The translations under genes were made by a program, and so were the position numbers. From positions 248,001 to 312,000 of the forward strand of contig JAIOQX010000006.1 in assembly GCA_021108415.1 (NCBI GenBank): a DNA stretch of 64,000 nucleotides. Reading direction: 5' to 3'. Origin of the DNA: Acholeplasmataceae bacterium (GTDB taxonomy: Bacteria; Bacillota_I; Bacilli_A; Acholeplasmatales; Acholeplasmataceae). Below the pieces are notes generated by a model, which saw only the letters and a program-made list of their open reading frames with translations, did not search any database and had not been told where the DNA came from. Shown here in pieces: positions 5,201 to 44,691 of the stretch; position 1 is the stretch's first letter; each line of letters begins with the position of its first letter.

Positions 5201-5360
5201 TATAATTTAATAATTAAAACTATCAAGAAGATGGGAGAGATATAGCTCTATGATCGTCTACCAACCAGTTGTAAAACAAGGTGGTAATGCTATAAACGAT
5301 GGGAAAACTTAGTGCATGATCTATACAAGTTTCTATCGTTGAGATAGGAACTTTTTTTAT
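5201..5360 (+). promoter_or_regulatory. Candidate S-box (SAM-I-like) riboswitch with terminator, upstream of metN
   Basis: A TATAAT -10 box lies at 5201-5206. The leader contains an S-box-like arrangement: ATCAAGA near 5222, a GAGATATAGCTC hairpin enclosed by TGG/CCA pairs, CCAACC, a P3-like TTGT-AAA-ACAA stem, then GGTGGTAATGC, which resembles the SAM-I core GGTGCTAATTCC. It ends in a terminator hairpin, stem 5329-5338/5343-5352 with one G-T pair, then seven T. The position in front of a methionine-type ABC importer fits SAM sensing. Several conserved SAM-I bases differ, so this is either a divergent S-box or a related leader; a covariance search was not possible here. Confidence 0.6.
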
Positions 5361-11640: not shown

Positions 11641-12525
11641 ATGAAAAACATTATAAAAATAATCAAAGGTAGTTTTGTAGGCATGGGATCCATATTACCC
11701 GGTATTTCAGGGTCTATGGTTGCGGCTATCTTAAAAATATATCAAGATTTAATAGATGCGCTAAACGATTTTTTAAAAGCACCTATACAATCAATCAAAA
11801 GTGTTTGGCAATATATCGTTGGGGTATTGTTAGGATTTATTATAGGATTTGTATTCATTAATTTCTTTTATGAACTTGCGCCAATACCAATCACATTTTT
11901 ATTTATCGGTTTTATCTTAGGGGCAATCCCCTCACTCATTAAAGAAGTTAAATCTAAGACATATAAATGGCATCATTTCTTTGTAATGATCATTGCAATT
12001 CTATTTATGGTTGGATTTATTTTTGTAACAGAAACTCAAAGCACTCAAACTGGATTTATATATTATATATCTGTATTTTTAGTTGGTGTGATTTATGCAG
12101 TTGCATTAATCATTCCAGGATTAAGTGGATCGACGATGTTAATGGCTTTTGGATATTTTCAAATTCTATTAACATTAGTAGATGAGATCGTTATAGCAAT
12201 AGTCAATCTAGATTTTTCAACCATTGTTTCTCAACTTCCAATGTTAGCCCTATTAATCCTTGGCGCACTTATTGGCTTGATACTTGTAGGCAAACTCATG
12301 CATTATCTACTTCATCACTATAAGACTCATTTCTACTTTGCAGTTTTGGGAATTGTCTTTATATCGCCATTTAATGTATTATTTACCTTACAAGATAACA
12401 CATCATCTAATGTGTTTCAAAGTGCATGGTATATGTATGTTATTGGTGGTATCTTATTTATACTAGGTGTTTATTTGACATATAAAATTTCACATTTAAA
12501 GAAAAATAAAGGAGAGATACAATGA
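11641..12525 (+). CDS. DUF368 family undecaprenyl-phosphate translocase (PopT-like)
   Basis: Polytopic membrane protein of 294 residues built from two inverted halves, each with the DUF368 signature: GMGSILPGISGSMVAAILKIYQ near the start and ALIIPGLSGSTMLMAFGYFQ in the middle. DUF368 members (PopT) were shown in other bacteria to flip undecaprenyl phosphate back to the inner leaflet. SD AGTAGAGG is acceptable. It stands opposite uppP and overlaps galU by 4 nt, so it belongs with lipid-carrier recycling and sugar-nucleotide supply. Confidence 0.83.
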   Translation: MKNIIKIIKGSFVGMGSILPGISGSMVAAILKIYQDLIDALNDFLKAPIQSIKSVWQYIVGVLLGFIIGFVFINFFYELAPIPITFLFIGFILGAIPSLIKEVKSKTYKWHHFFVMIIAILFMVGFIFVTETQSTQTGFIYYISVFLVGVIYAVALIIPGLSGSTMLMAFGYFQILLTLVDEIVIAIVNLDFSTIVSQLPMLALLILGALIGLILVGKLMHYLLHHYKTHFYFAVLGIVFISPFNVLFTLQDNTSSNVFQSAWYMYVIGGILFILGVYLTYKISHLKKNKGEIQ

Positions 12526-13394
12526 TTAAAAAAGCAGTTATTCCAGCAGCAGGATATGGGACAAGATTCCTTCCAATTACTAAAGCTCTGCCTAAAGAAC
12601 TATTACCTATTATTGATAGACCAACAATAGAATATATAGTCAATGAGGCAATTGCAAGTGGGATTACAGATATCTTATTAATTGTTAGTAATAATAAAAA
12701 TGCCATCATTGATTATTTTGATTACAACATAGAATTAGAAACAATACTATTAAACAAAGGAAAAGATGAAGAATTCAAAATGCTAAGAGAAATTGGTAAA
12801 GGCGCAAACCTTCATTTCATTAGACAAAAAGAACAACTAGGCCTAGGTCATGCTGTCCTACAAGCTGAAGCTTTTGTCGGCAATGATCCATTTGTTGTTT
12901 TACTTGGTGATGACATGTATGTGACTAAAGAAGTACCTGCTATTAAACAAATGATGGATGTCTTTGAAAAAACACAAGCATCAATTCTAGGTACCATGGA
13001 AGTTGCTTATGAAGATACTTATAAATATGGTATATGTACACCAAAGCATGAGAAAAAAGATAGACTCGTTGAATTAAGTGATGTCGTTGAAAAACCAGAC
13101 ATCGAAGTAGCACCTTCAAGATCTGCGATTGGCGGAAGATATGTATTAACACCAACAATATTCAAATATCTTAAGAATCAACAAAGAGGAAAAGGGAACG
13201 AGATCCAATTGACAGATGCAATCTTGAGATTAATGAAAGAAGAAAAAGTTTATGCATATGATATTGATGCTAAAAGATATGATGTTGGAAATAAACTTGA
13301 CTATATAGAAGCAATCCTAGACTTTGGTTTAGAAAATAAAGAGTTAAATAAAGGGCTAAAGGCTTTACTTAAAGAAAAAGCTAAAATTAAATAA
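12522..13394 (+). CDS. galU: UTP-glucose-1-phosphate uridylyltransferase
   Basis: Makes UDP-glucose, the donor for glycolipids and surface glycans. The nucleotidyl-transferase signature PAAGYGTRFLPITKALPKE lies at residues 8-26, followed by DRPTIEYIVNEA and GLGHAVLQAE, and VLLGDDMY for metal/nucleotide binding. Length 290 is typical. It starts in the stop region of the DUF368 gene with SD AAAGGAG. UDP-glucose is the natural precursor of the glucolipids typical of Acholeplasma membranes. Confidence 0.95.
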   Translation: MIKKAVIPAAGYGTRFLPITKALPKELLPIIDRPTIEYIVNEAIASGITDILLIVSNNKNAIIDYFDYNIELETILLNKGKDEEFKMLREIGKGANLHFIRQKEQLGLGHAVLQAEAFVGNDPFVVLLGDDMYVTKEVPAIKQMMDVFEKTQASILGTMEVAYEDTYKYGICTPKHEKKDRLVELSDVVEKPDIEVAPSRSAIGGRYVLTPTIFKYLKNQQRGKGNEIQLTDAILRLMKEEKVYAYDIDAKRYDVGNKLDYIEAILDFGLENKELNKGLKALLKEKAKIK

Positions 13395-13398
13395 GGGC

Positions 13399-13427
13399 TT
13401 TACATTTAATGGATATGCCTTTATAAT
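13399..13427 (+). promoter_or_regulatory. Promoter of the serS T-box transcript
   Basis: TTTACA at 13399-13404, a 17-nt spacer, and TATAAT at 13422-13427. It lies just after the galU stop and starts the T-box leader. Confidence 0.8.
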
Positions 13428-13433
13428 ATAAAT

Positions 13434-13655
13434 AACTCGTATGAGAGAATAGTAATATCAAAATATCTACTTAATTAGAGAAAACACGGTTGGTGAAAGT
13501 GTTTAAGTGATTATGATATGAATCTACTCTTTAGAGGTGCTAATCACACCCGCAGATCTGCGTTATAGATAATTTAGAGGGCTAGATGAAAATCTAGAAC
13601 TAAGGTGGTACCGCGAAACTTCGTCCTTAGACAATTTGTCTAAGGACTTTTTTAT
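13434..13655 (+). promoter_or_regulatory. T-box leader (tRNA-Ser sensing) upstream of serS
   Basis: The T-box sequence AAGGTGGTACCGCG is at 13602-13615. Upstream is a stem I region with the GGTTGGTG-type element; the probable specifier triplet is TCT (Ser) at 13523-13525, in the context GAATCTACT. The terminator stem at 13623-13647 (GTCCTTAGAC / GTCTAAGGAC) is followed by six T. Uncharged tRNA-Ser should pair with specifier and T-box and stabilise the antiterminator, raising serS expression. Confidence 0.93.
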
Positions 13656-35570: not shown

Positions 35571-35885
35571 GATATGGTATTCCAATCCATCCTGCATAGT
35601 GACCAAGGCAATATTTATGCATGAAGTAAGTTTGAGAAAGCAAATAAGAACTATCCGATTACAAGAAGCATGTCAAGGGTAGCTACTCCAACTGATAACG
35701 CAGTAATCGAATCGCTTAATGGATGGATTAAAGCAGACATTAAAAAGAACTTAAAAATTGATGATTTTCAAGATCCATGGAAAGCTATTGAAACCTATGT
35801 GAATTACTTCAATAACAAAAGACCGTCTTGGAAATTGAATTACTTAAGTCCTGTAGAATATAGAGTGATGAATGGAATAAAATAA
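35571..35885 (+). pseudogene. IS3-family transposase (OrfB) C-terminal remnant
   Basis: The reading frame carries LHSDQGNIYA, then an in-frame TGA at about 35622, then SKFEKANKNYPITRSMSR, TPTDNAVIESLNGWIKADI and KRPSWKLNYLSPVEYR. These are the last two catalytic blocks (D and E of DDE) of an IS3/IS150-type integrase-like transposase. The N-terminal two thirds, OrfA and recognisable terminal repeats are missing, so this is a decayed insertion. The stretch 35217-36083 holds no other convincing gene apart from the hairpins and the fragment listed separately. Confidence 0.85.
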
Positions 35886-35995: not shown

Positions 35996-36130
35996 TCATA
36001 GCAGAGCACAAAAATGATATGCAATTTCCCCTTCAAGTTGATTCCTACTTACTGGCATTGACAAATCATCATCTTTGTAATAATTATGATATGTTACCTT
36101 CAACAAATAACCAGTTGATCCCATTTTCAT
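35996..36130 (-). other. Possible coding remnant overlapping the end of the left immunity gene
   Basis: On the minus strand a 44-codon frame runs from ATG 36130 to TGA 35996 and contains KVTYHNYYKDDDLSMPVSRN and QLEGEIAYHFCALL. Its composition is protein-like, and it overlaps the immunity gene in another frame without a good SD. It may be the tail of a displaced gene or the out-of-frame end of a longer immunity protein. Not recognised. Confidence 0.3.
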
Positions 36131-36401
36131 CTACCAATAGACTGAGTTCACCTAAATAATCATAATGACTATTCCAACCAGAACATTGTTCAGTAAAATA
36201 ATTTTCCATAATTTCAAATTCTTTCTTATTAATCTTTAGTTTAGATTCAATAATAGTATATACTCCGTACTCAAATGATAGGCAATACTCATGTTGAAGA
36301 ATTTCATAGTTGAATTCTTCAACAATTTTTGAGTTATTTAACCTTCTTCCTATATTTTGATTCATTCTAAAAAGCAACTCGCGAACTTGTATTTCTTTCA
36401 T
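36084..36401 (-). CDS. Putative immunity protein for the EndoU tip
   Basis: A 105-residue cytosolic protein without signal peptide, rich in Glu, Asn and aromatic residues (YCLSFEYGVYTIIESK, CSGWNSHYDYLGELSLL). I do not recognise the family. It starts 18 nt after the stop of the EndoU tip, on the same strand, with a strong SD (GGAGG). In polymorphic toxin systems the gene directly after the toxin tip encodes the specific immunity protein, so this is the inferred role. Whether it is expressed in the present orientation is unclear because the cassette has no evident promoter. Confidence 0.6.
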   Translation of the reverse strand: MKEIQVRELLFRMNQNIGRRLNNSKIVEEFNYEILQHEYCLSFEYGVYTIIESKLKINKKEFEIMENYFTEQCSGWNSHYDYLGELSLLVDENGINWLFVEGNIS

Positions 36402-36419: not shown

Positions 36420-37739
36420 CTAATTAGAAGCGGGACCATAAGGTAATGGATAAGCAGTCTTAACTCCCCCACTTTTATATGTAACTACCCTCATGTATAC
36501 ACCATCATACCAACCTTCATATCTAACATAAGGACCTTGACTAACTCGATATGAAGTGGGTGAATCTATTACACTATTTATTACCCTGTAAATATTATTT
36601 TCATTCCAATTTCTTGGAAAATATGTTTTTCCCGGATTGAGTGGTTGCCCAAAATCCATATGACCTCCACCTCCAAATTCATCCTCATATAATACATGAT
36701 TCATATCACCTATCATCATTGGGCTACCATGAATATATGTTCCTGTCATCCAATAATATGTTGGTCCATAAGTGAAGATCATATTGCCCATACCTGAATT
36801 AATATCTGTATTGTACACATCATTATAAGGTATAGTTCCTGTGAATCTAGAACCTCCACCTCCAAGGATTCCTCCACCACCAACTGGTGTACCTACTCCA
36901 CCTCCAGATGCACAACCATATAAACTTTCTGAAGTGTTTCCATCATCATCCGTGTACAAATAGCAATATCCACTAGGGTCAACATTCATCACAGGATTAT
37001 TTTCTGTATAGGTAAACATATTATATCCTAATACTGTATTACTTGCTTTTAACATCCCATCTGCATTAATAAATCTTCCAGTTACAGGATTGTAATATCT
37101 TGATTGCAAATAGTATAGTCCGCTTTCTTGATCATAACGATATCCTCTATAACGATAAGGATTTGCGTTTGCTAAAGCTGAAGATGTTTGAGCAGTAATA
37201 TTACCGTATGCATCATATCTATAATATACCACAGTATAACCAGCGGAATCAATGAGATAAGACACATTTCCAAGCGCATCAAACATATAAAAATATTCAG
37301 ATCCATTATATCTCATAGAGATTAAAGATCCATCTACATCATATGTATAATAGATTTCATTGGTTCCATCTGTTTCATATAAGACTAAAGATCCATTTAA
37401 GTAATAAGTTGTTGTGACTGAACCTACAGTTTTTGAATCTCTGATTCCATCTTGATTGTATGTATATGTTGAAGTCATAGATCCAATTGTTTGAGATATT
37501 AAACTACGTTCTTCCCATGTGAATGACTTGTCATAAGATGTACCTCTGGTATCATCTATTTCAATAACATTACCAGAATTGTCATAAGTAAAAGTTAAAG
37601 TATAACTCAAAGATGAATTAACAGTATCTGTATATACCATGCTACTAATCTTATCTTTCCAAGTAGAATGATAAGTACATACTTCAGCTTGTAATACTGA
37701 GCCTAAAGTATTGTTGCCTTGAACAAAATCATAATAAGT
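36420..37739 (-). CDS. Displaced RHS core fragment with EndoU nuclease tip (orphan toxin cassette)
   Basis: Headless 3' part of an RHS toxin gene. The first 260 codons repeat the RHS core of the large gene at 37824-44165, ending RFINADG...NNPVMNVDPSGYC. After a Gly-rich linker comes a different tip of about 170 residues that fits the bacterial EndoU endoribonuclease: NHVLYEDEFGGGGHMDFG with the two catalytic histidines, GKTYFPRNWNENN, and GVKTAYPL at the end. The frame is open back to a TAG at 37742-37740 and has no good start; the first internal ATG is at 37640. It is probably silent until joined to an RHS body. Confidence 0.82.
   Translation of the reverse strand, partial: TYYDFVQGNNTLGSVLQAEVCTYHSTWKDKISSMVYTDTVNSSLSYTLTFTYDNSGNVIEIDDTRGTSYDKSFTWEERSLISQTIGSMTSTYTYNQDGIRDSKTVGSVTTTYYLNGSLVLYETDGTNEIYYTYDVDGSLISMRYNGSEYFYMFDALGNVSYLIDSAGYTVVYYRYDAYGNITAQTSSALANANPYRYRGYRYDQESGLYYLQSRYYNPVTGRFINADGMLKASNTVLGYNMFTYTENNPVMNVDPSGYCYLYTDDDGNTSESLYGCASGGGVGTPVGGGGILGGGGSRFTGTIPYNDVYNTDINSGMGNMIFTYGPTYYWMTGTYIHGSPMMIGDMNHVLYEDEFGGGGHMDFGQPLNPGKTYFPRNWNENNIYRVINSVIDSPTSYRVSQGPYVRYEGWYDGVYMRVVTYKSGGVKTAYPLPYGPASN
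36964..37574 (-). repeat. Left arm of 611-bp inverted repeat (RHS core)
   Basis: Reverse complement of 43038-43648; I compared all 611 positions line by line and found no difference. Outside this block, 37575-37739 is still homologous to 42872-43037 but with many substitutions. Identity stops at the codon for Tyr-Cys after DPSG, the usual toxin-tip junction. Confidence 0.95.
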
Positions 37740-37783
37740 CTAAACAATATTTACTTTATTTATTTTTTATGATAATATGTGAT

Positions 37784-37789
37784 TATAAT
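37784..37789 (+). promoter_or_regulatory. -10 box of the RHS toxin gene
   Basis: TATAAT, 35 nt before the ATG at 37824. No clear -35 box. It lies between the two inverted-repeat arms and would turn with an inversion. Confidence 0.5.
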
Positions 37790-37823
37790 AGTTTCACAAA
37801 CTAAAATGGGGAGATAATTGAAT

Positions 37824-39959
37824 ATGTTTAAGAAAAAATCATTAAAAGATCAACAGATTTTGGTTTTGGTTAGATTACTAAATGCGAGTAAAAAGGTGCT
37901 TATTTTTTTAGCTTTGTTTGGTCAATTGTGGAGTATGGTACCATGGAGTGCTTTTCAAGTACAAGCATCAACTATACCTGAACAGGATCTCATTTCTGAT
38001 CAGAATCTTATGGAAAAGTATCCCACAACAACGGATGCTAATTTTGATCAAAGTCAAGTAGCAATTGAATCAGAAATGATTGATGAGAGAACAGCAAACA
38101 CAAAGACTTTTCGAAAAGTCGATGGCACATATGAAGTAGCTATGTATAACGATATTATTCATTATCAAGAAGATGGAAAGTGGAAACAAATCAACAATAG
38201 TTTAAATGATACTGGAAGTGAGTTGGAAAACAAGGATAATAAATTTAAAGTGAAATTCCCGAAAAAAATTGATGATAATAAATCGATTAAATTAACATTA
38301 GATAAGTATAGTATTGATTGGAATATTCTTGATATTAATCAATCAACAGTGAGCTATGATGAATCTAAAACAGAAACAAATGATATCAAAGAATTGATAA
38401 ATATAAATCAATCAGTTTTATACAGTCAAGCTCTTCAAGATGTAGATATTGAGTATATATTAACGGGCAGTAAAATTAAAGAAAATATTATTCTCAACAA
38501 CTATATTGAAGATTTCAGATTAACGTTTGAATATAAGTTAAAAGATTTATCTCTTATTCAAGATGAAAATGGAAGTATTTTGTTTTTAAACCAAGATGAA
38601 GAGGTTGTTTTTTCCTTTGATGAACTATATATGATTGATGATGAATTAAATACATCATTTGATGTTTTATATGAACTTAATCATATAGGTAATAAAGTGT
38701 ATCAAATTACAATCATTCCAAATGATGAATGGTTACAAATTGCATCATATCCAGTGAAGATTGATCCAAGTTTAGTGATTAATGGATCTGATAGTCCTGG
38801 CATACGAGATAAATATGTCACATCTACAAAAGCATTTGAATATAGTAGTTTTCTTTTGGTGGGGAAAAACAGCATAGATAGTTATAAAAGCTATATCGAA
38901 ATTTCAACTGTAGAGATTCCAGAAGATGCGATTGTAAGTTATGCACATCTGCAATTAAGAACATATTATGGAACAACTTACAATCATTGTGATTTTTTAA
39001 GTTGTCAAATTAACTTAAAAAAAGTCAATTATACGTCATCTTGGACCAATATTAATAGAAACACATTTGCCGATGTAGACACATTTATTGAAGATTATGA
39101 TTATGTGTATCCTGGAGATATAGGCATTGAGTATTATCGCTGGGATATGACAAAAGTAATGAACGATTGGTTAGAAGATAATCGCTCAGTTGGTATTGTT
39201 GAATTAAGCAAACAGACACTAGTAACTAACGATCATATGTATTTTGCATCAGAAGAATATGGAGATACAATTGGACCTAACGTTATCGTAGGTTATCAAT
39301 ACACAACAGGATTATATAACTTTTGGACTTATCACAGTGCTCCGGTTGGTGATGCAGGAACAGCTATGATTAATGATTTTACTGGCGAGCTCAATCTTGT
39401 TAGAAATGATTATTTTGGAAAACATGAAGGTCTTGTTATTGATATAGGCATGTATTATAGTGAAAATCTTAAAGATATTAATATAGGATATGGGCTAGGA
39501 TGGAGAACGAATTTTGATAGTTATGCATCGGTAAATGCAACAACTGGTGAACGAATAGTTACAAATTCAAATGGAAGTAAGACTTATTTTGAGTATGTTC
39601 CTGCAGATTTTTCAACTGATGAACCACTTATTAGAGACAATAATCTAACGACGTACTTAGCAGATGATGGAAGCCGAAACATTCTTGTAGTTGATGATTA
39701 TAATAATGATCAAAATCTAGATATTATTGTGTATACTCCTGATCGGATTAGAAGTATCTATAATAATGGAAGACTTGTTCGAATCGAAGATCTCAAGACA
39801 GGACAGTTTCTAAGTATTCATCATGATGCTAACAATAGAATAGACAAAGTGTCTGATTTTTATGGTAATTTTATATCTTTTGAATATGATTCAACAACTC
39901 ATAATTTAGAATACCAATTAATTCAACTTGCTCAAACATGGGATGTAGACGGAAATTGA
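37824..39959 (+). CDS. RHS/YD-repeat polymorphic toxin, N-terminal part (ends at in-frame TGA)
   Basis: WapA-like secreted giant protein. A basic start (MFKKKSLKDQQ) and a hydrophobic stretch (about residues 24-45) ending in QVQAS form a signal peptide. Residues about 50-300 carry a propeptide-like region; about 310-500 resemble a DNRLRE/CBM96 domain (LLVGKNSIDSYKSYIEI, EIPEDAIVSYAHLQLRT). APVGDAGTAMINDFTGEL begins the YD/beta-cocoon part. SD GGGGAG supports ATG 37824 over TTG 37818. The frame stops at TGA 39957-39959 and simply continues after it to 44165 in the same frame, so this is one gene broken by one codon: a nonsense mutation, a readthrough site or a sequencing error. Confidence 0.85.
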   Translation: MFKKKSLKDQQILVLVRLLNASKKVLIFLALFGQLWSMVPWSAFQVQASTIPEQDLISDQNLMEKYPTTTDANFDQSQVAIESEMIDERTANTKTFRKVDGTYEVAMYNDIIHYQEDGKWKQINNSLNDTGSELENKDNKFKVKFPKKIDDNKSIKLTLDKYSIDWNILDINQSTVSYDESKTETNDIKELININQSVLYSQALQDVDIEYILTGSKIKENIILNNYIEDFRLTFEYKLKDLSLIQDENGSILFLNQDEEVVFSFDELYMIDDELNTSFDVLYELNHIGNKVYQITIIPNDEWLQIASYPVKIDPSLVINGSDSPGIRDKYVTSTKAFEYSSFLLVGKNSIDSYKSYIEISTVEIPEDAIVSYAHLQLRTYYGTTYNHCDFLSCQINLKKVNYTSSWTNINRNTFADVDTFIEDYDYVYPGDIGIEYYRWDMTKVMNDWLEDNRSVGIVELSKQTLVTNDHMYFASEEYGDTIGPNVIVGYQYTTGLYNFWTYHSAPVGDAGTAMINDFTGELNLVRNDYFGKHEGLVIDIGMYYSENLKDINIGYGLGWRTNFDSYASVNATTGERIVTNSNGSKTYFEYVPADFSTDEPLIRDNNLTTYLADDGSRNILVVDDYNNDQNLDIIVYTPDRIRSIYNNGRLVRIEDLKTGQFLSIHHDANNRIDKVSDFYGNFISFEYDSTTHNLEYQLIQLAQTWDVDGN

Positions 39960-40037
39960 ACTTCATATAATTTAGTTGAAGTTATAGAATATGGTTATTC
40001 TCGAAATGCACTGGATAATAACGATAACCTATCTAGT

Positions 40038-43000
40038 GTGTCATATCATAAGGATTATAGAGGACAAGTAAGTTGTTTAGATATTGTGAATTCTACATAT
40101 CAAGGGTTTTCAACATTTATGGCAAATGCATCTTCAGATACAGTAATTTATGATTATTATGATTCACTAGGCGGAGATGATAGACTAGATTCGATAACTT
40201 CAAGTGAAGGACTGAATCTTGAAATCCAATATGACACATTAAATAAAGTTGATCAATATATCTATACCATGGATAATGATAATCTAGGATTCATTGATAT
40301 TGAATATGCGTTATATCAAACAACATTTGAAGATCATCTAGGAAATTCAGTGATGTATACATTTGATAGTTATGGACATACAGTAAATATATTAGATGAT
40401 TTTGGAAATGCTACATATTATAGATACTTGAATCCTTGGACTGGAACATTTGAAAGTAAAAATTTATTTTTAAATCATAAACTCGTTGAATCATCACTTC
40501 CTCAAAAAACTCAATTAAATCCAATTGGAAACCATAGCTTTGAGTATAATACACCTAGTACTGATACAAATTGGGATTTTGTAATAGATTGGACAGCAGG
40601 ATTTCCTAAAAATCCTACAGCTGGTTATTCAAATATAAATAGCTTATTTGGAGAAAATTCAGCAAGAATTTATGTATATAGTGATCAAGTAGCACATTTA
40701 GAACAAGATGTAATTCTTGATCAAGGTAGCGGATATAGACTTGGTGGGTATATATATGGAGATACTTCAGATGATGCATATCTAGCTGTCAAGATAGGCA
40801 GTACGACTTATACTTCATCATCTATCACTCAGATGGGAGCATGGCAATATGTATATGTGGATTTTGATATTTCTTCAAACAATTCAGTGGTTGAAGTTAA
40901 GTTATACAATAACAATTCTGGAGCAGCTTATTTTGATAATATTCAAATTACGAATGCCTTTCAAGATACTAGAGTAAACATACTTGATAATCCATCATTT
41001 GAGATGAACACAACTGGATGGACATTGAGTAATGCAACTCGAGTTTATGATGGTATTGAAAATCAACAAGGCGATTTATATGATAGTATTCTAGGTGATT
41101 ATTACATTCTAATCATTGGTGATGCTGACTTAGGTAAATATGTTGAAACCACTCTAACAAGTTCAGAATTTGAAGCAGGAAGTAATTATATTATTTCTGC
41201 ATGGGCTAAAGGCGATGTAACACCAAATAAACATTATGATCAAAATCCAGATGGTAGAGCCTTTGGAATTTACGTGACACTTTCTGATGGAACAAATTCA
41301 GATGAGTATTACTACGAATTTGACTCAGATATCGAATCATGGCAATATCAAGCCTCAAAAATATATGTAGATACTACGATTACATCAATCAATGTAAAGG
41401 TATATTATAGAGGTGAAGGTACTGTATATTTTGATGGTATACAAATGTATAATGAATCTTTTGGAACCGAATATAGCTATGATACATATGGAAATACAGA
41501 ATATATTAGCACGCCTGAATCAAGTGGTTTGATCCAATACGAATATGATGTAGATAACAGATTTTTACTTGATAAAAGTACAGATCAAAATAATAAAATT
41601 ACATATTTTGGGGCCTATAGTTCAGGTTTATTTAAAGATGTTTCACAAAACAATGTCGCTACATCAATAACTTATAATGAATATAATAAGGTCTATAGAG
41701 TTGAAATTGGAGAAGATGCAAATAATGATGGTGTAGTTGATGGATCATACTATCAGAATTATTTATATTATACTACCCAAGGTCAGTATATTTCTAAAAC
41801 AAAAGATGAATTTGGAAGTGAAATAGAATATACAATGGGACTTCTTAATGGACTTTTAACATCCTTTGATAATGAAATAGACATCGCAACAAATTATACA
41901 TATGATGAAAAAGGCAGAATAGAAACTATATCCAAAGATAATTCAACAATCACCTATCATTACACTGGTGATGTACTTGATGAAATTCAAATGAACGGTA
42001 TGACTTACAAACTCGAATATGACGATTTATATCGATTGGAATATGTTTACATTGGAACTGGAACTGAAGGGAATTTTACTGGTTCTGTGTTAAAAGAATA
42101 TACTTATGATACTGATATCGCTAGCAATATAACGTATGAAACAAATAGAGTATCTGAAGAAATATTTGGTAATGGGGATAAAATAAAAATAACTTATAAT
42201 GATGAAAATCAAATTGAGGGTTTATGGTTTTATGAAACTAATCAATATGTAAAAAGATATTCATATGAGTATAACCAATCAGGTAATCTTACAGTATTGA
42301 AAGATATAAGAGATAATCAAGAATACTATTATAATTATGATCTTGTAGGACGCATTAAAAAAGTAATAAATCAAGATGGTGATGTAGTTTCATATGATTA
42401 TGATAATGCAGGAAATCTTCACATCTATACATTTGATATTGCAGGATTTAGCCGAGATACAGCGTTTAATTATGATTTGACATCTGGAATCTATGATAAA
42501 ACAGAGTTTGATGATGTAACTAAAAACTATACATTTGAAACAGATGACTTAAGAAGATTAGTTGGTATATCCACAACACTGAATTCCACAACAATTAATA
42601 CAATCTTCTTTAATTATTCTGAGGGTATTGATGTTGTTTATGGAGATGTATCCAGAAGAATAAAAACGATCACTCAAACCAATAGTCATCACAATATTAT
42701 GCAAACAATGGAATATAATGAGCAAGGCTATATTACAAAGATAACTGATTTTTCTTCCGATATTCTTGAATACTATTATGATGCAAAGAATCAACTTGTT
42801 AGAGAAAACAACGAAATAGACAATTATACGTTTACCTATGTCTATGATGATTATGGCAATCTAGAGACTCAATCATATTATAGTTTTGTTCAAGGCAACA
42901 ATACAGTAGGCTCAGTATTACAAACTGAAGTATGTACTTATCATTCAACTTGGAAAGATAAAATCAGTAGTATGGTATATACAGATGTACTTAATTCATC

Positions 43001-44165
43001 ATTAAGTTATACACTAACTTTCGAATATGACAATTCAGGTAATGTTATTGAAATAGATGATACCAGAGGTACATCTTATGACAAGTCATTCACATGGGAA
43101 GAACGTAGTTTAATATCTCAAACAATTGGATCTATGACTTCAACATATACATACAATCAAGATGGAATCAGAGATTCAAAAACTGTAGGTTCAGTCACAA
43201 CAACTTATTACTTAAATGGATCTTTAGTCTTATATGAAACAGATGGAACCAATGAAATCTATTATACATATGATGTAGATGGATCTTTAATCTCTATGAG
43301 ATATAATGGATCTGAATATTTTTATATGTTTGATGCGCTTGGAAATGTGTCTTATCTCATTGATTCCGCTGGTTATACTGTGGTATATTATAGATATGAT
43401 GCATACGGTAATATTACTGCTCAAACATCTTCAGCTTTAGCAAACGCAAATCCTTATCGTTATAGAGGATATCGTTATGATCAAGAAAGCGGACTATACT
43501 ATTTGCAATCAAGATATTACAATCCTGTAACTGGAAGATTTATTAATGCAGATGGGATGTTAAAAGCAAGTAATACAGTATTAGGATATAATATGTTTAC
43601 CTATACAGAAAATAATCCTGTGATGAATGTTGACCCTAGTGGATATTGTTCATTTGCATCACAAAATGACCCGATGACATATATGGATATTAGAAATTGT
43701 AATGGCTCTGATCACACAGGAAGAATAAAACTATATTTTGGTTTATATAAAACTGAGTATTTCAACTCTATTGAAGAAGCAGTAATAAGATGGGGACAAA
43801 TCAATGGTAAGTTGACATCAATAGATCATTTGGAAAGAGGAGCTATTATACTATCAAAAGTTATAAATGGACGAACAAGATATTTTATAAATATGACAAT
43901 CAAAGGGAGTAATACAACAAATTGGTTAGGATTCGTGATTGGATATACTCTTGCAATTCCAACTAGCAGTGTTATAGGCTTTATCCATTCTCATACTGCT
44001 TATCCTAATACAGATGGAACTTGGAATCAAAAAGATTACGGACCTTCATCTGCTGATTTGTTTTTGTTTAATCTTCCAGGTATTAACCGTCAATTCATTG
44101 TTAATGAATTACAAAGATTATATGAGTTTGATAAAGGAGGAATTGAAACTGATGTCTACAACTAG
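40038..44165 (+). CDS. RHS/YD-repeat polymorphic toxin, C-terminal part with JAMM/DUF4329-like tip
   Basis: Same frame as the preceding part; the open frame begins at 39960 right after the TGA, and the GTG at 40038 has no SD, so independent translation is doubtful. Two CBM4/9-like modules (NHSFEYNT..., NPSFEMNTTGW...) span about 40500-41465. YD repeats follow to 42900, then the RHS core (YRYRGYRYDQESGLYYLQSR, ending NNPVMNVDPSGYC). The tip (43649-44165) has the JAMM pattern: Glu at 43833-43835 (HLERGAII), HSH at 43986-43994 (GFIHSHTAYP) and SSAD at 44046-44057. This matches DUF4329, a JAB-like domain common in RHS tips, perhaps a peptidase. The stop overlaps the following lipoprotein gene by 14 nt. 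Confidence 0.85.
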   Translation: MSYHKDYRGQVSCLDIVNSTYQGFSTFMANASSDTVIYDYYDSLGGDDRLDSITSSEGLNLEIQYDTLNKVDQYIYTMDNDNLGFIDIEYALYQTTFEDHLGNSVMYTFDSYGHTVNILDDFGNATYYRYLNPWTGTFESKNLFLNHKLVESSLPQKTQLNPIGNHSFEYNTPSTDTNWDFVIDWTAGFPKNPTAGYSNINSLFGENSARIYVYSDQVAHLEQDVILDQGSGYRLGGYIYGDTSDDAYLAVKIGSTTYTSSSITQMGAWQYVYVDFDISSNNSVVEVKLYNNNSGAAYFDNIQITNAFQDTRVNILDNPSFEMNTTGWTLSNATRVYDGIENQQGDLYDSILGDYYILIIGDADLGKYVETTLTSSEFEAGSNYIISAWAKGDVTPNKHYDQNPDGRAFGIYVTLSDGTNSDEYYYEFDSDIESWQYQASKIYVDTTITSINVKVYYRGEGTVYFDGIQMYNESFGTEYSYDTYGNTEYISTPESSGLIQYEYDVDNRFLLDKSTDQNNKITYFGAYSSGLFKDVSQNNVATSITYNEYNKVYRVEIGEDANNDGVVDGSYYQNYLYYTTQGQYISKTKDEFGSEIEYTMGLLNGLLTSFDNEIDIATNYTYDEKGRIETISKDNSTITYHYTGDVLDEIQMNGMTYKLEYDDLYRLEYVYIGTGTEGNFTGSVLKEYTYDTDIASNITYETNRVSEEIFGNGDKIKITYNDENQIEGLWFYETNQYVKRYSYEYNQSGNLTVLKDIRDNQEYYYNYDLVGRIKKVINQDGDVVSYDYDNAGNLHIYTFDIAGFSRDTAFNYDLTSGIYDKTEFDDVTKNYTFETDDLRRLVGISTTLNSTTINTIFFNYSEGIDVVYGDVSRRIKTITQTNSHHNIMQTMEYNEQGYITKITDFSSDILEYYYDAKNQLVRENNEIDNYTFTYVYDDYGNLETQSYYSFVQGNNTVGSVLQTEVCTYHSTWKDKISSMVYTDVLNSSLSYTLTFEYDNSGNVIEIDDTRGTSYDKSFTWEERSLISQTIGSMTSTYTYNQDGIRDSKTVGSVTTTYYLNGSLVLYETDGTNEIYYTYDVDGSLISMRYNGSEYFYMFDALGNVSYLIDSAGYTVVYYRYDAYGNITAQTSSALANANPYRYRGYRYDQESGLYYLQSRYYNPVTGRFINADGMLKASNTVLGYNMFTYTENNPVMNVDPSGYCSFASQNDPMTYMDIRNCNGSDHTGRIKLYFGLYKTEYFNSIEEAVIRWGQINGKLTSIDHLERGAIILSKVINGRTRYFINMTIKGSNTTNWLGFVIGYTLAIPTSSVIGFIHSHTAYPNTDGTWNQKDYGPSSADLFLFNLPGINRQFIVNELQRLYEFDKGGIETDVYN
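43038..43648 (+). repeat. Right arm of 611-bp inverted repeat (RHS core)
   Basis: Exact reverse complement of 36964-37574 by eye. It ends at the toxin-tip junction after DPSGY. Arms are separated by 5,463 nt that hold the RHS promoter and nearly the whole RHS body. Confidence 0.95.
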
Positions 44166-44691
44166 AATTTTTAAGAATCTAGCAATAAGTCTGATATTTC
44201 TTTTATTTATCTACGGTTTAGTTGCTTGTGATTCTAGAAGAAAATTAAATATAAATGAACAAACTGAATTAATTGATAAGGCTGAAACAGTTATATTGGC
44301 TGAAACAAGTTGGAATAACAATATTCTTTTGCTTACTCAGGAGGGGATACTCCTCCTTAGTGATGAAAATAATGAAGAAAATTTCAATGCGATACTTCAG
44401 AATGATTTAAATCAATTTCAAATTCTGTTAACTCAACTATTTAGCAATACTAATGAGTTAACAATCAATGGAGGATTTTATGTAAATCATTCATTTTATC
44501 TACTATCGGTTCTTATTGATGATAACTCAATTGAAATTGTAGAGTTGCATATAAGGTTTTTCTCTGATAGCAACATTATTATTGAACCAGTATACAAAAA
44601 TGAAGCTGAAGGTCAAATACTTGGTGTCATATTCAATATAGAATTAGACATGTTGCATAGCAACAAATATGGTTTCGAATATAATAATTAA
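44152..44691 (+). CDS. Putative immunity lipoprotein for the JAMM-type tip
   Basis: A 179-residue protein with a type II signal peptide: hydrophobic LAISLIFLLFIYGL and lipobox LVAC at about residues 23-26, then a Ser/Arg/Lys start of the mature part. The rest is acidic and not recognised. The ATG lies inside the toxin gene and AAAGGAGG precedes it, so it is translated with the toxin. A lipid-anchored immunity protein would meet the toxin outside the membrane, which would fit a tip that acts on the cell surface or during entry. Immunity function is inferred from position. Confidence 0.65.
   Translation: MSTTRIFKNLAISLIFLLFIYGLVACDSRRKLNINEQTELIDKAETVILAETSWNNNILLLTQEGILLLSDENNEENFNAILQNDLNQFQILLTQLFSNTNELTINGGFYVNHSFYLLSVLIDDNSIEIVELHIRFFSDSNIIIEPVYKNEAEGQILGVIFNIELDMLHSNKYGFEYNN

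What the first reader, a model, noticed from the sequence alone, without database searches (positions are those of the whole stretch)
39957..39959. Single in-frame TGA splits a 2,113-residue toxin
Seen: 37824-39956 and 39960-44165 are one continuous frame broken only by TGA, in the context GAC GGA AAT TGA ACT TCA. The window otherwise uses TGA as stop and TGG for Trp. The downstream GTG at 40038 has no SD. A Trp, Arg or Gly codon could have become TGA by one change. Inference: nonsense mutation that silences a costly toxin, programmed or leaky readthrough, or sequencing error.
Basis: partly seen in the sequence, partly recalled or inferred. Interest (0 to 1): 0.6.

Follow-up and report, generated by a model that had tools for sequence, protein, structure and literature searches.

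The report
Recent nonsense mutation in Rhs toxin
A bacterium related to Acholeplasma carries a giant secreted Rhs-type toxin gene that one stop codon has very recently cut in two, while a same-genus relative has the gene unbroken; this is most likely ordinary gene inactivation and not a special way of reading the genetic code.

Summary
In detail: one in-frame TGA (39957-39959) splits an otherwise open 2,113-codon frame. The gene is a secreted DNRLRE/YD-repeat (Rhs) polymorphic toxin, with a variable tip followed by a candidate lipoprotein immunity gene. The genome lies near Acholeplasmataceae. A same-genus genome (G004) has a collinear, unbroken 2,109-aa copy with a sense codon at the place and no gap across the shared 711+~1,250 codons. 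Both halves still look selected (dN/dS 0.17 before, 0.25 after), and changes on this genome's own branch after the stop are no looser than on the relative's. Only one lesion is present, so the stop is very young. Recoding is unlikely: TGA ends 55 of 279 long genes, RF2 is present, all 33 tRNAs lack a UCA anticodon, and neither SelB nor tRNA-Sec passes its cut-off. No usable restart site follows the stop. Relatives carry different breaks in this gene family (including a single TAA). Best reading: a recent loss-of-function nonsense mutation. A base-call error cannot be excluded without reads; slight UGA leakage is possible. Noticed in passing: a silent EndoU tip faces the main gene across a 773-bp inverted repeat, 611 bp of it identical, so the locus could in principle flip between two tips.

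The parts
37739..37823 (+). upstream region of the main gene (AT-rich, with a Shine-Dalgarno-like GGGGAG at 37808-37813); only about 90 bp separates it from the inverted orphan core
   Evidence: homology to G004 begins at 37731
37824..39956 (+). N-terminal half of the broken Rhs gene: hydrophobic export-signal-like start, DNRLRE-like domain, start of the YD/Rhs part (711 codons)
39957..39959 (+). in-frame TGA that interrupts the gene
39960..43648 (+). remaining YD-repeat/Rhs shell and Rhs_assc_core, collinear with the intact G004 gene
43649..44165 (+). variable C-terminal tip with an HSH...S..D motif (JAMM/JAB-like by eye only; no Pfam match); shared with one distant Rhs fragment, not with G004
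44152..44691 (+). candidate immunity gene: lipoprotein-like, 179 aa, overlaps the toxin's end, strong Shine-Dalgarno (-11.7 kcal/mol)
36420..37640 (-). promoterless orphan Rhs tip: core piece plus EndoU nuclease domain (frame open for 439 codons)
36084..36401 (-). candidate immunity gene of the EndoU tip (105 aa)
   Evidence: position and size only
36964..37736 (-). orphan copy of the Rhs core, inverted against 42876-43648 of the main gene; 611 of 773 bp without a mismatch
35670..35885 (+). transposase (integrase core) fragment near the locus

Best explanation
A very recent single-base nonsense mutation has inactivated a full-length secreted Rhs/YD-repeat polymorphic toxin. Translation ends at UGA after 711 codons, giving an exported-looking N-terminal stub without the Rhs shell and tip. 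The downstream 1,401 codons are not translated, or only at trace level by ordinary UGA leakage. The immunity gene keeps its own Shine-Dalgarno and could still be made. Shown: the stop, the intact collinear relative, standard use of TGA, absence of a restart site, absence of further decay. Inferred: that the base is real, that the product is lost, and that loss is tolerated or favoured because the toxin is dispensable.
For: G004 has an unbroken 2,109-aa ortholog, 92% and 87% identical over the two pieces, without a gap over 711 and ~1,250 codons and with a sense codon at the place. TGA is a regular stop (55/279 genes) with RF2 present over its cut-off. All 33 tRNA genes were read: tRNA-Trp is CCA and none is UCA. 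No SelB or tRNA-Sec over cut-off. Starts after the TGA lack a good Shine-Dalgarno (best within 400 nt -4.2 kcal/mol, against -7.8 at the gene's ATG). Age: long decay would give about 36 stops at 13% neutral change and about 1.5 at 0.5%; one is seen. Sister genes are broken elsewhere and differently: single TAA in G006, frameshift plus TGA in G030, frameshift plus TAG in G029, apparent frameshifts in G067.
Against: No raw reads, so an error is not excluded. The absence of any decay after the stop is also what an error or functional leakage would give. Loss of expression was not measured. tRNA-Trp has A24-U11 (read from its sequence); G24A is named in PMC13092985 as a UGA-reading variant, so some leakage is plausible.
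Confidence: 0.74

Rival explanations
1. Base-call or assembly error: the organism's gene is intact and the TGA is not there.
For: One substitution only, no other lesion, and selection signatures intact on both sides. G004 is intact.
Against: The assembly is good (6 contigs, 99.85% complete); in 464 kb I recognised no other case of this sort; relatives carry real-looking, different breaks in sister genes.
Confidence: 0.13
2. Leaky UGA: tRNA-Trp misreads UGA in a few per cent of passages, so a low dose of full-length toxin is still made and maintains selection.
For: PMC7918605 cites 6% readthrough of a TGA in a prfB+ Bacillus subtilis strain and notes that interrupted genes often keep dN/dS below 1. 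No relaxation on the own branch after the stop (28 synonymous/13 nonsynonymous against 24/13). tRNA-Trp has A24-U11.
Against: The branch is mostly older than the stop, so the selection test cannot separate this from a young null. TGA is used as a stop by a fifth of long genes. tRNA-Trp has a paired 5-bp anticodon stem, with G27-U43 at the top.
Confidence: 0.08
3. Programmed recoding (selenocysteine, or a structure-driven readthrough element).
For: The 84 nt from the TGA fold better than shuffles (z -3.3) and better than any of 105 windows sampled along the gene.
Against: The fold was picked after the fact; without the stop codon z is -2.6, and G004, with a sense codon, forms nearly the same hairpins (z -1.65). 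No SelB or tRNA-Sec over cut-off. No relative found has a stop here.
Confidence: 0.02
4. Natural gene fission: two proteins, the second started internally.
For: Both pieces are open.
Against: The next start is 78 nt on, a GTG with no Shine-Dalgarno; the second piece would lack an export signal; G004 has one gene.
Confidence: 0.02

Closest known systems
Rhs/WapA-type YD-repeat polymorphic toxins of Gram-positive bacteria (e.g. Streptococcus suis WapA, PMC12704120)
   Same: Long exported-looking protein with YD/Rhs repeats, Rhs_assc_core, DPxG-type boundary, exchangeable C-terminal tip and a neighbouring candidate immunity gene.
   Different: DNRLRE-like N-terminal part; found in an Acholeplasmataceae-like genome; this copy is broken by a stop.
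rhs main/orphan loci of Salmonella (PMC3967940) and tip displacement in Enterobacteriaceae (PMC2935791)
   Same: A promoterless orphan tip with a stretch of near-identical core next to the main gene, which lets homologous recombination change the tip.
   Different: There the orphan lies downstream of the main gene; here it lies upstream, head to head, so a crossover would invert the main gene's front part instead of deleting or duplicating it.
In-frame stop codons inside bacterial genes (PMC7918605)
   Same: Single nonsense codon, dN/dS below 1 around it.
   Different: Here an intact relative, release factor, tRNA set and internal starts were checked as well.

Membership tests
Rhs/YD-repeat polymorphic toxin | YD/Rhs repeats and Rhs-associated core | tested here: met
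   PF05593 36 bits (cut-off 22), TIGR03696 71 bits (cut-off 32.5); solved Rhs proteins matched
Rhs/YD-repeat polymorphic toxin | conserved core followed by an exchangeable tip at a DPxG-type boundary | tested here: met
   VDPSGYC boundary; alignment with G004 breaks up just after it; the EndoU orphan shares the core only
Rhs/YD-repeat polymorphic toxin | cognate immunity gene downstream | tested here: inconclusive
   overlapping lipoprotein-like gene 44152-44691; no family over cut-off
Rhs/YD-repeat polymorphic toxin | antibacterial activity of the tip | not testable with these tools
   needs an assay
UGA = Trp genetic code | RF2 lost | tested here: not met
   prfB 524 bits, cut-off 370; Mollicutes with UGA=Trp lack RF2 (PMC4014445)
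UGA = Trp genetic code | tRNA-Trp with UCA anticodon | tested here: not met
   33 tRNA genes read, none UCA; tRNA-Trp is CCA
UGA = Trp genetic code | TGA not used to end genes | tested here: not met
   55 of 279 long genes end in TGA
selenoprotein | SelB and tRNA-Sec in the genome | tested here: not met
   no match over the cut-off for either
pseudogene by nonsense mutation | frame interrupted where an ortholog is intact | tested here: met
   G004
pseudogene by nonsense mutation | relaxed selection or further lesions after the stop | tested here: not met
   no further lesion; own-branch changes 28 syn/13 nonsyn against 24/13; so it is young, or not a true pseudogene

The most novel reading that the evidence does not exclude
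The locus is an invertible two-tip toxin: recombination between the inverted cores (36964-37736 and 42876-43648) would turn the shared front of the gene to face either the EndoU tip or the HSH-motif tip, and the UGA in that shared front acts as a leaky brake on both states.
Probability: 0.06. Interest if true: 0.6.

Novelty: new member of a known kind. Interest (0 to 1): 0.17.

Why it matters
It indicates that this stop is most likely a recent null in a standard-code genome, so it should not be taken as recoding in a lineage close to the mycoplasmas that did reassign UGA. It also documents repeated, independent breakage of large Rhs toxins in this family. The inverted main/orphan layout could make tip switching by inversion directly testable.

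Tried and rejected
Genome-collection scan with the N-terminal half found no relative. Exact pattern over the site (with N at the stop) in viral contigs: none. Pfam, NCBIfam and solved structures gave no reliable name for the tip; the JAMM/JAB-like label rests on the motif seen by eye. The stem-loop after the stop looked special at first but is shared by the relative with a sense codon. The best match to the SelB profile, 199 bits below the cut-off of 242, lies about 2 kb from a GTPase frame of EF-G size and is most likely EF-Tu (inference). Inverted main/orphan repeats like the window's were not seen in the other loci inspected; G094 has an inverted pair of two orphan tips and G117 a short inverted pair of repeats. 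Paper searches found no described Rhs locus that switches tips by inversion, within an open-access library only.

Full report
Observation. The TGA at 39957-39959 exists in the stated context. From ATG 37824 the frame is open for 711 codons, and after the TGA for 1,401 codons up to the stop at 44163-44165.

What the gene is. The first piece has a hydrophobic export-signal-like start and a DNRLRE-like domain (31 bits, just under the NCBIfam cut-off of 34). The second has an RHS repeat and an Rhs-associated core over their cut-offs and matches solved Rhs proteins. After the VDPSGYC boundary comes a 171-aa tip with an HSH...S..D motif. It has no Pfam match, but it recurs at 42% identity on an Rhs fragment of one distant genome. 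A lipoprotein-like gene with a strong Shine-Dalgarno overlaps the end (44152-44691) and is the candidate immunity gene. This is the anatomy of a Rhs/WapA-type polymorphic toxin; activity is untested. The genome (1.78 Mb in 6 contigs; 31% GC in the sampled 464 kb) lies near Acholeplasmataceae: its TsaD is 83% identical to that of an uncultured Acholeplasmataceae bacterium.

The intact relative. A same-genus genome, G004, encodes the same protein as one uninterrupted 2,109-aa frame, 92% identical to the first piece and 87% to the second. There is no gap over 711 codons before and ~1,250 after the site, and G004 has a sense codon there. Intact copies therefore exist; which base would mend this one is deliberately not stated.

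Age. Pairwise dN/dS is 0.168 before and 0.245 after the stop. With a third sequence (G063), changes private to this genome after the stop are 28 synonymous and 13 nonsynonymous, against 24 and 13 in G004: no relaxation. Simulated neutral decay gives about 36 stops at 13% change and 1.5 at 0.5%; one is seen and no frameshift. So the stop is very young, or an error, or does not abolish the product.

Recoding tests. In 464 kb, 55 of 279 long genes end in TGA and TGG is used 947 times. RF2 is present over its cut-off. All 33 tRNA genes were read for anticodon: tRNA-Trp is CCA and none is UCA. SelB and tRNA-Sec do not reach their cut-offs. That agrees with published work in which Acholeplasma laidlawii and phytoplasmas keep RF2 while other Mollicutes lost it (PMC4014445). 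The RNA after the stop folds well, but the relative with a sense codon shares the hairpins. Restart is unlikely: the first start is a GTG 78 nt on with no Shine-Dalgarno, and none within 400 nt exceeds -4.2 kcal/mol, against -7.8 at the gene's ATG and -11.7 at the immunity gene.

Recurrence. Sister genes are broken differently in relatives: one TAA in a same-frame gene of G006, frameshift plus TGA in G030, frameshift plus TAG in G029, apparent frameshifts in G067. Many others are intact. Breakage of this class is ordinary and not tied to TGA.

Context. The orphan EndoU tip (36420-37640, minus strand) faces the main gene. Its core (36964-37736) is an inverted copy of 42876-43648: 22 mismatches in the first 162 bp, then 611 bp without any, although main genes of the two species differ by about 9%. 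Recent exchange between the two cores is the simplest reading of that identity; inversion is possible, not shown. In G004 the EndoU orphan lies downstream in direct orientation, the layout known from Salmonella, where recombination moves orphan tips onto the main gene (PMC3967940). The TGA lies in the part that both tips would share.

Verdict. Most likely an ordinary, very recent nonsense mutation in a dispensable toxin gene (0.74). Error 0.13, functional leakage 0.08, programmed recoding 0.02, fission 0.02. Interest is low; the inverted-tip layout is the more interesting lead.

Noticed in passing
36964-37736 (-) and 42876-43648 (+): Head-to-head inverted Rhs cores, 97% identical with 611 bp free of mismatches up to the tip boundary; inversion would swap the EndoU and HSH-motif tips on the main gene.
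   Followed up: partly
L065 (G004 C1:1577000-1596000, reverse complement 11669-13578): The relative's main gene carries a different tip, and its EndoU orphan is downstream in direct orientation; no flanking DNA outside the Rhs block is shared within the 19 kb inspected, so the block has moved or been rearranged.
   Followed up: partly
L140 (G006:C38), around 8325 on its minus strand: A second Rhs gene split by a single in-frame stop, here TAA (1,266 + 981 open codons).
   Followed up: partly
35670-35885: Fragment of a transposase (integrase core domain) next to the orphan tip.
   Followed up: no
L131 5349-5423 (tRNA-Trp): tRNA-Trp(CCA) has A24-U11 and a G27-U43 top pair in the anticodon stem, features that may favour some UGA misreading.
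   Followed up: partly
5217-5305 and 13431-13631: SAM riboswitch and T-box leader, both over their Rfam gathering scores.
   Followed up: no
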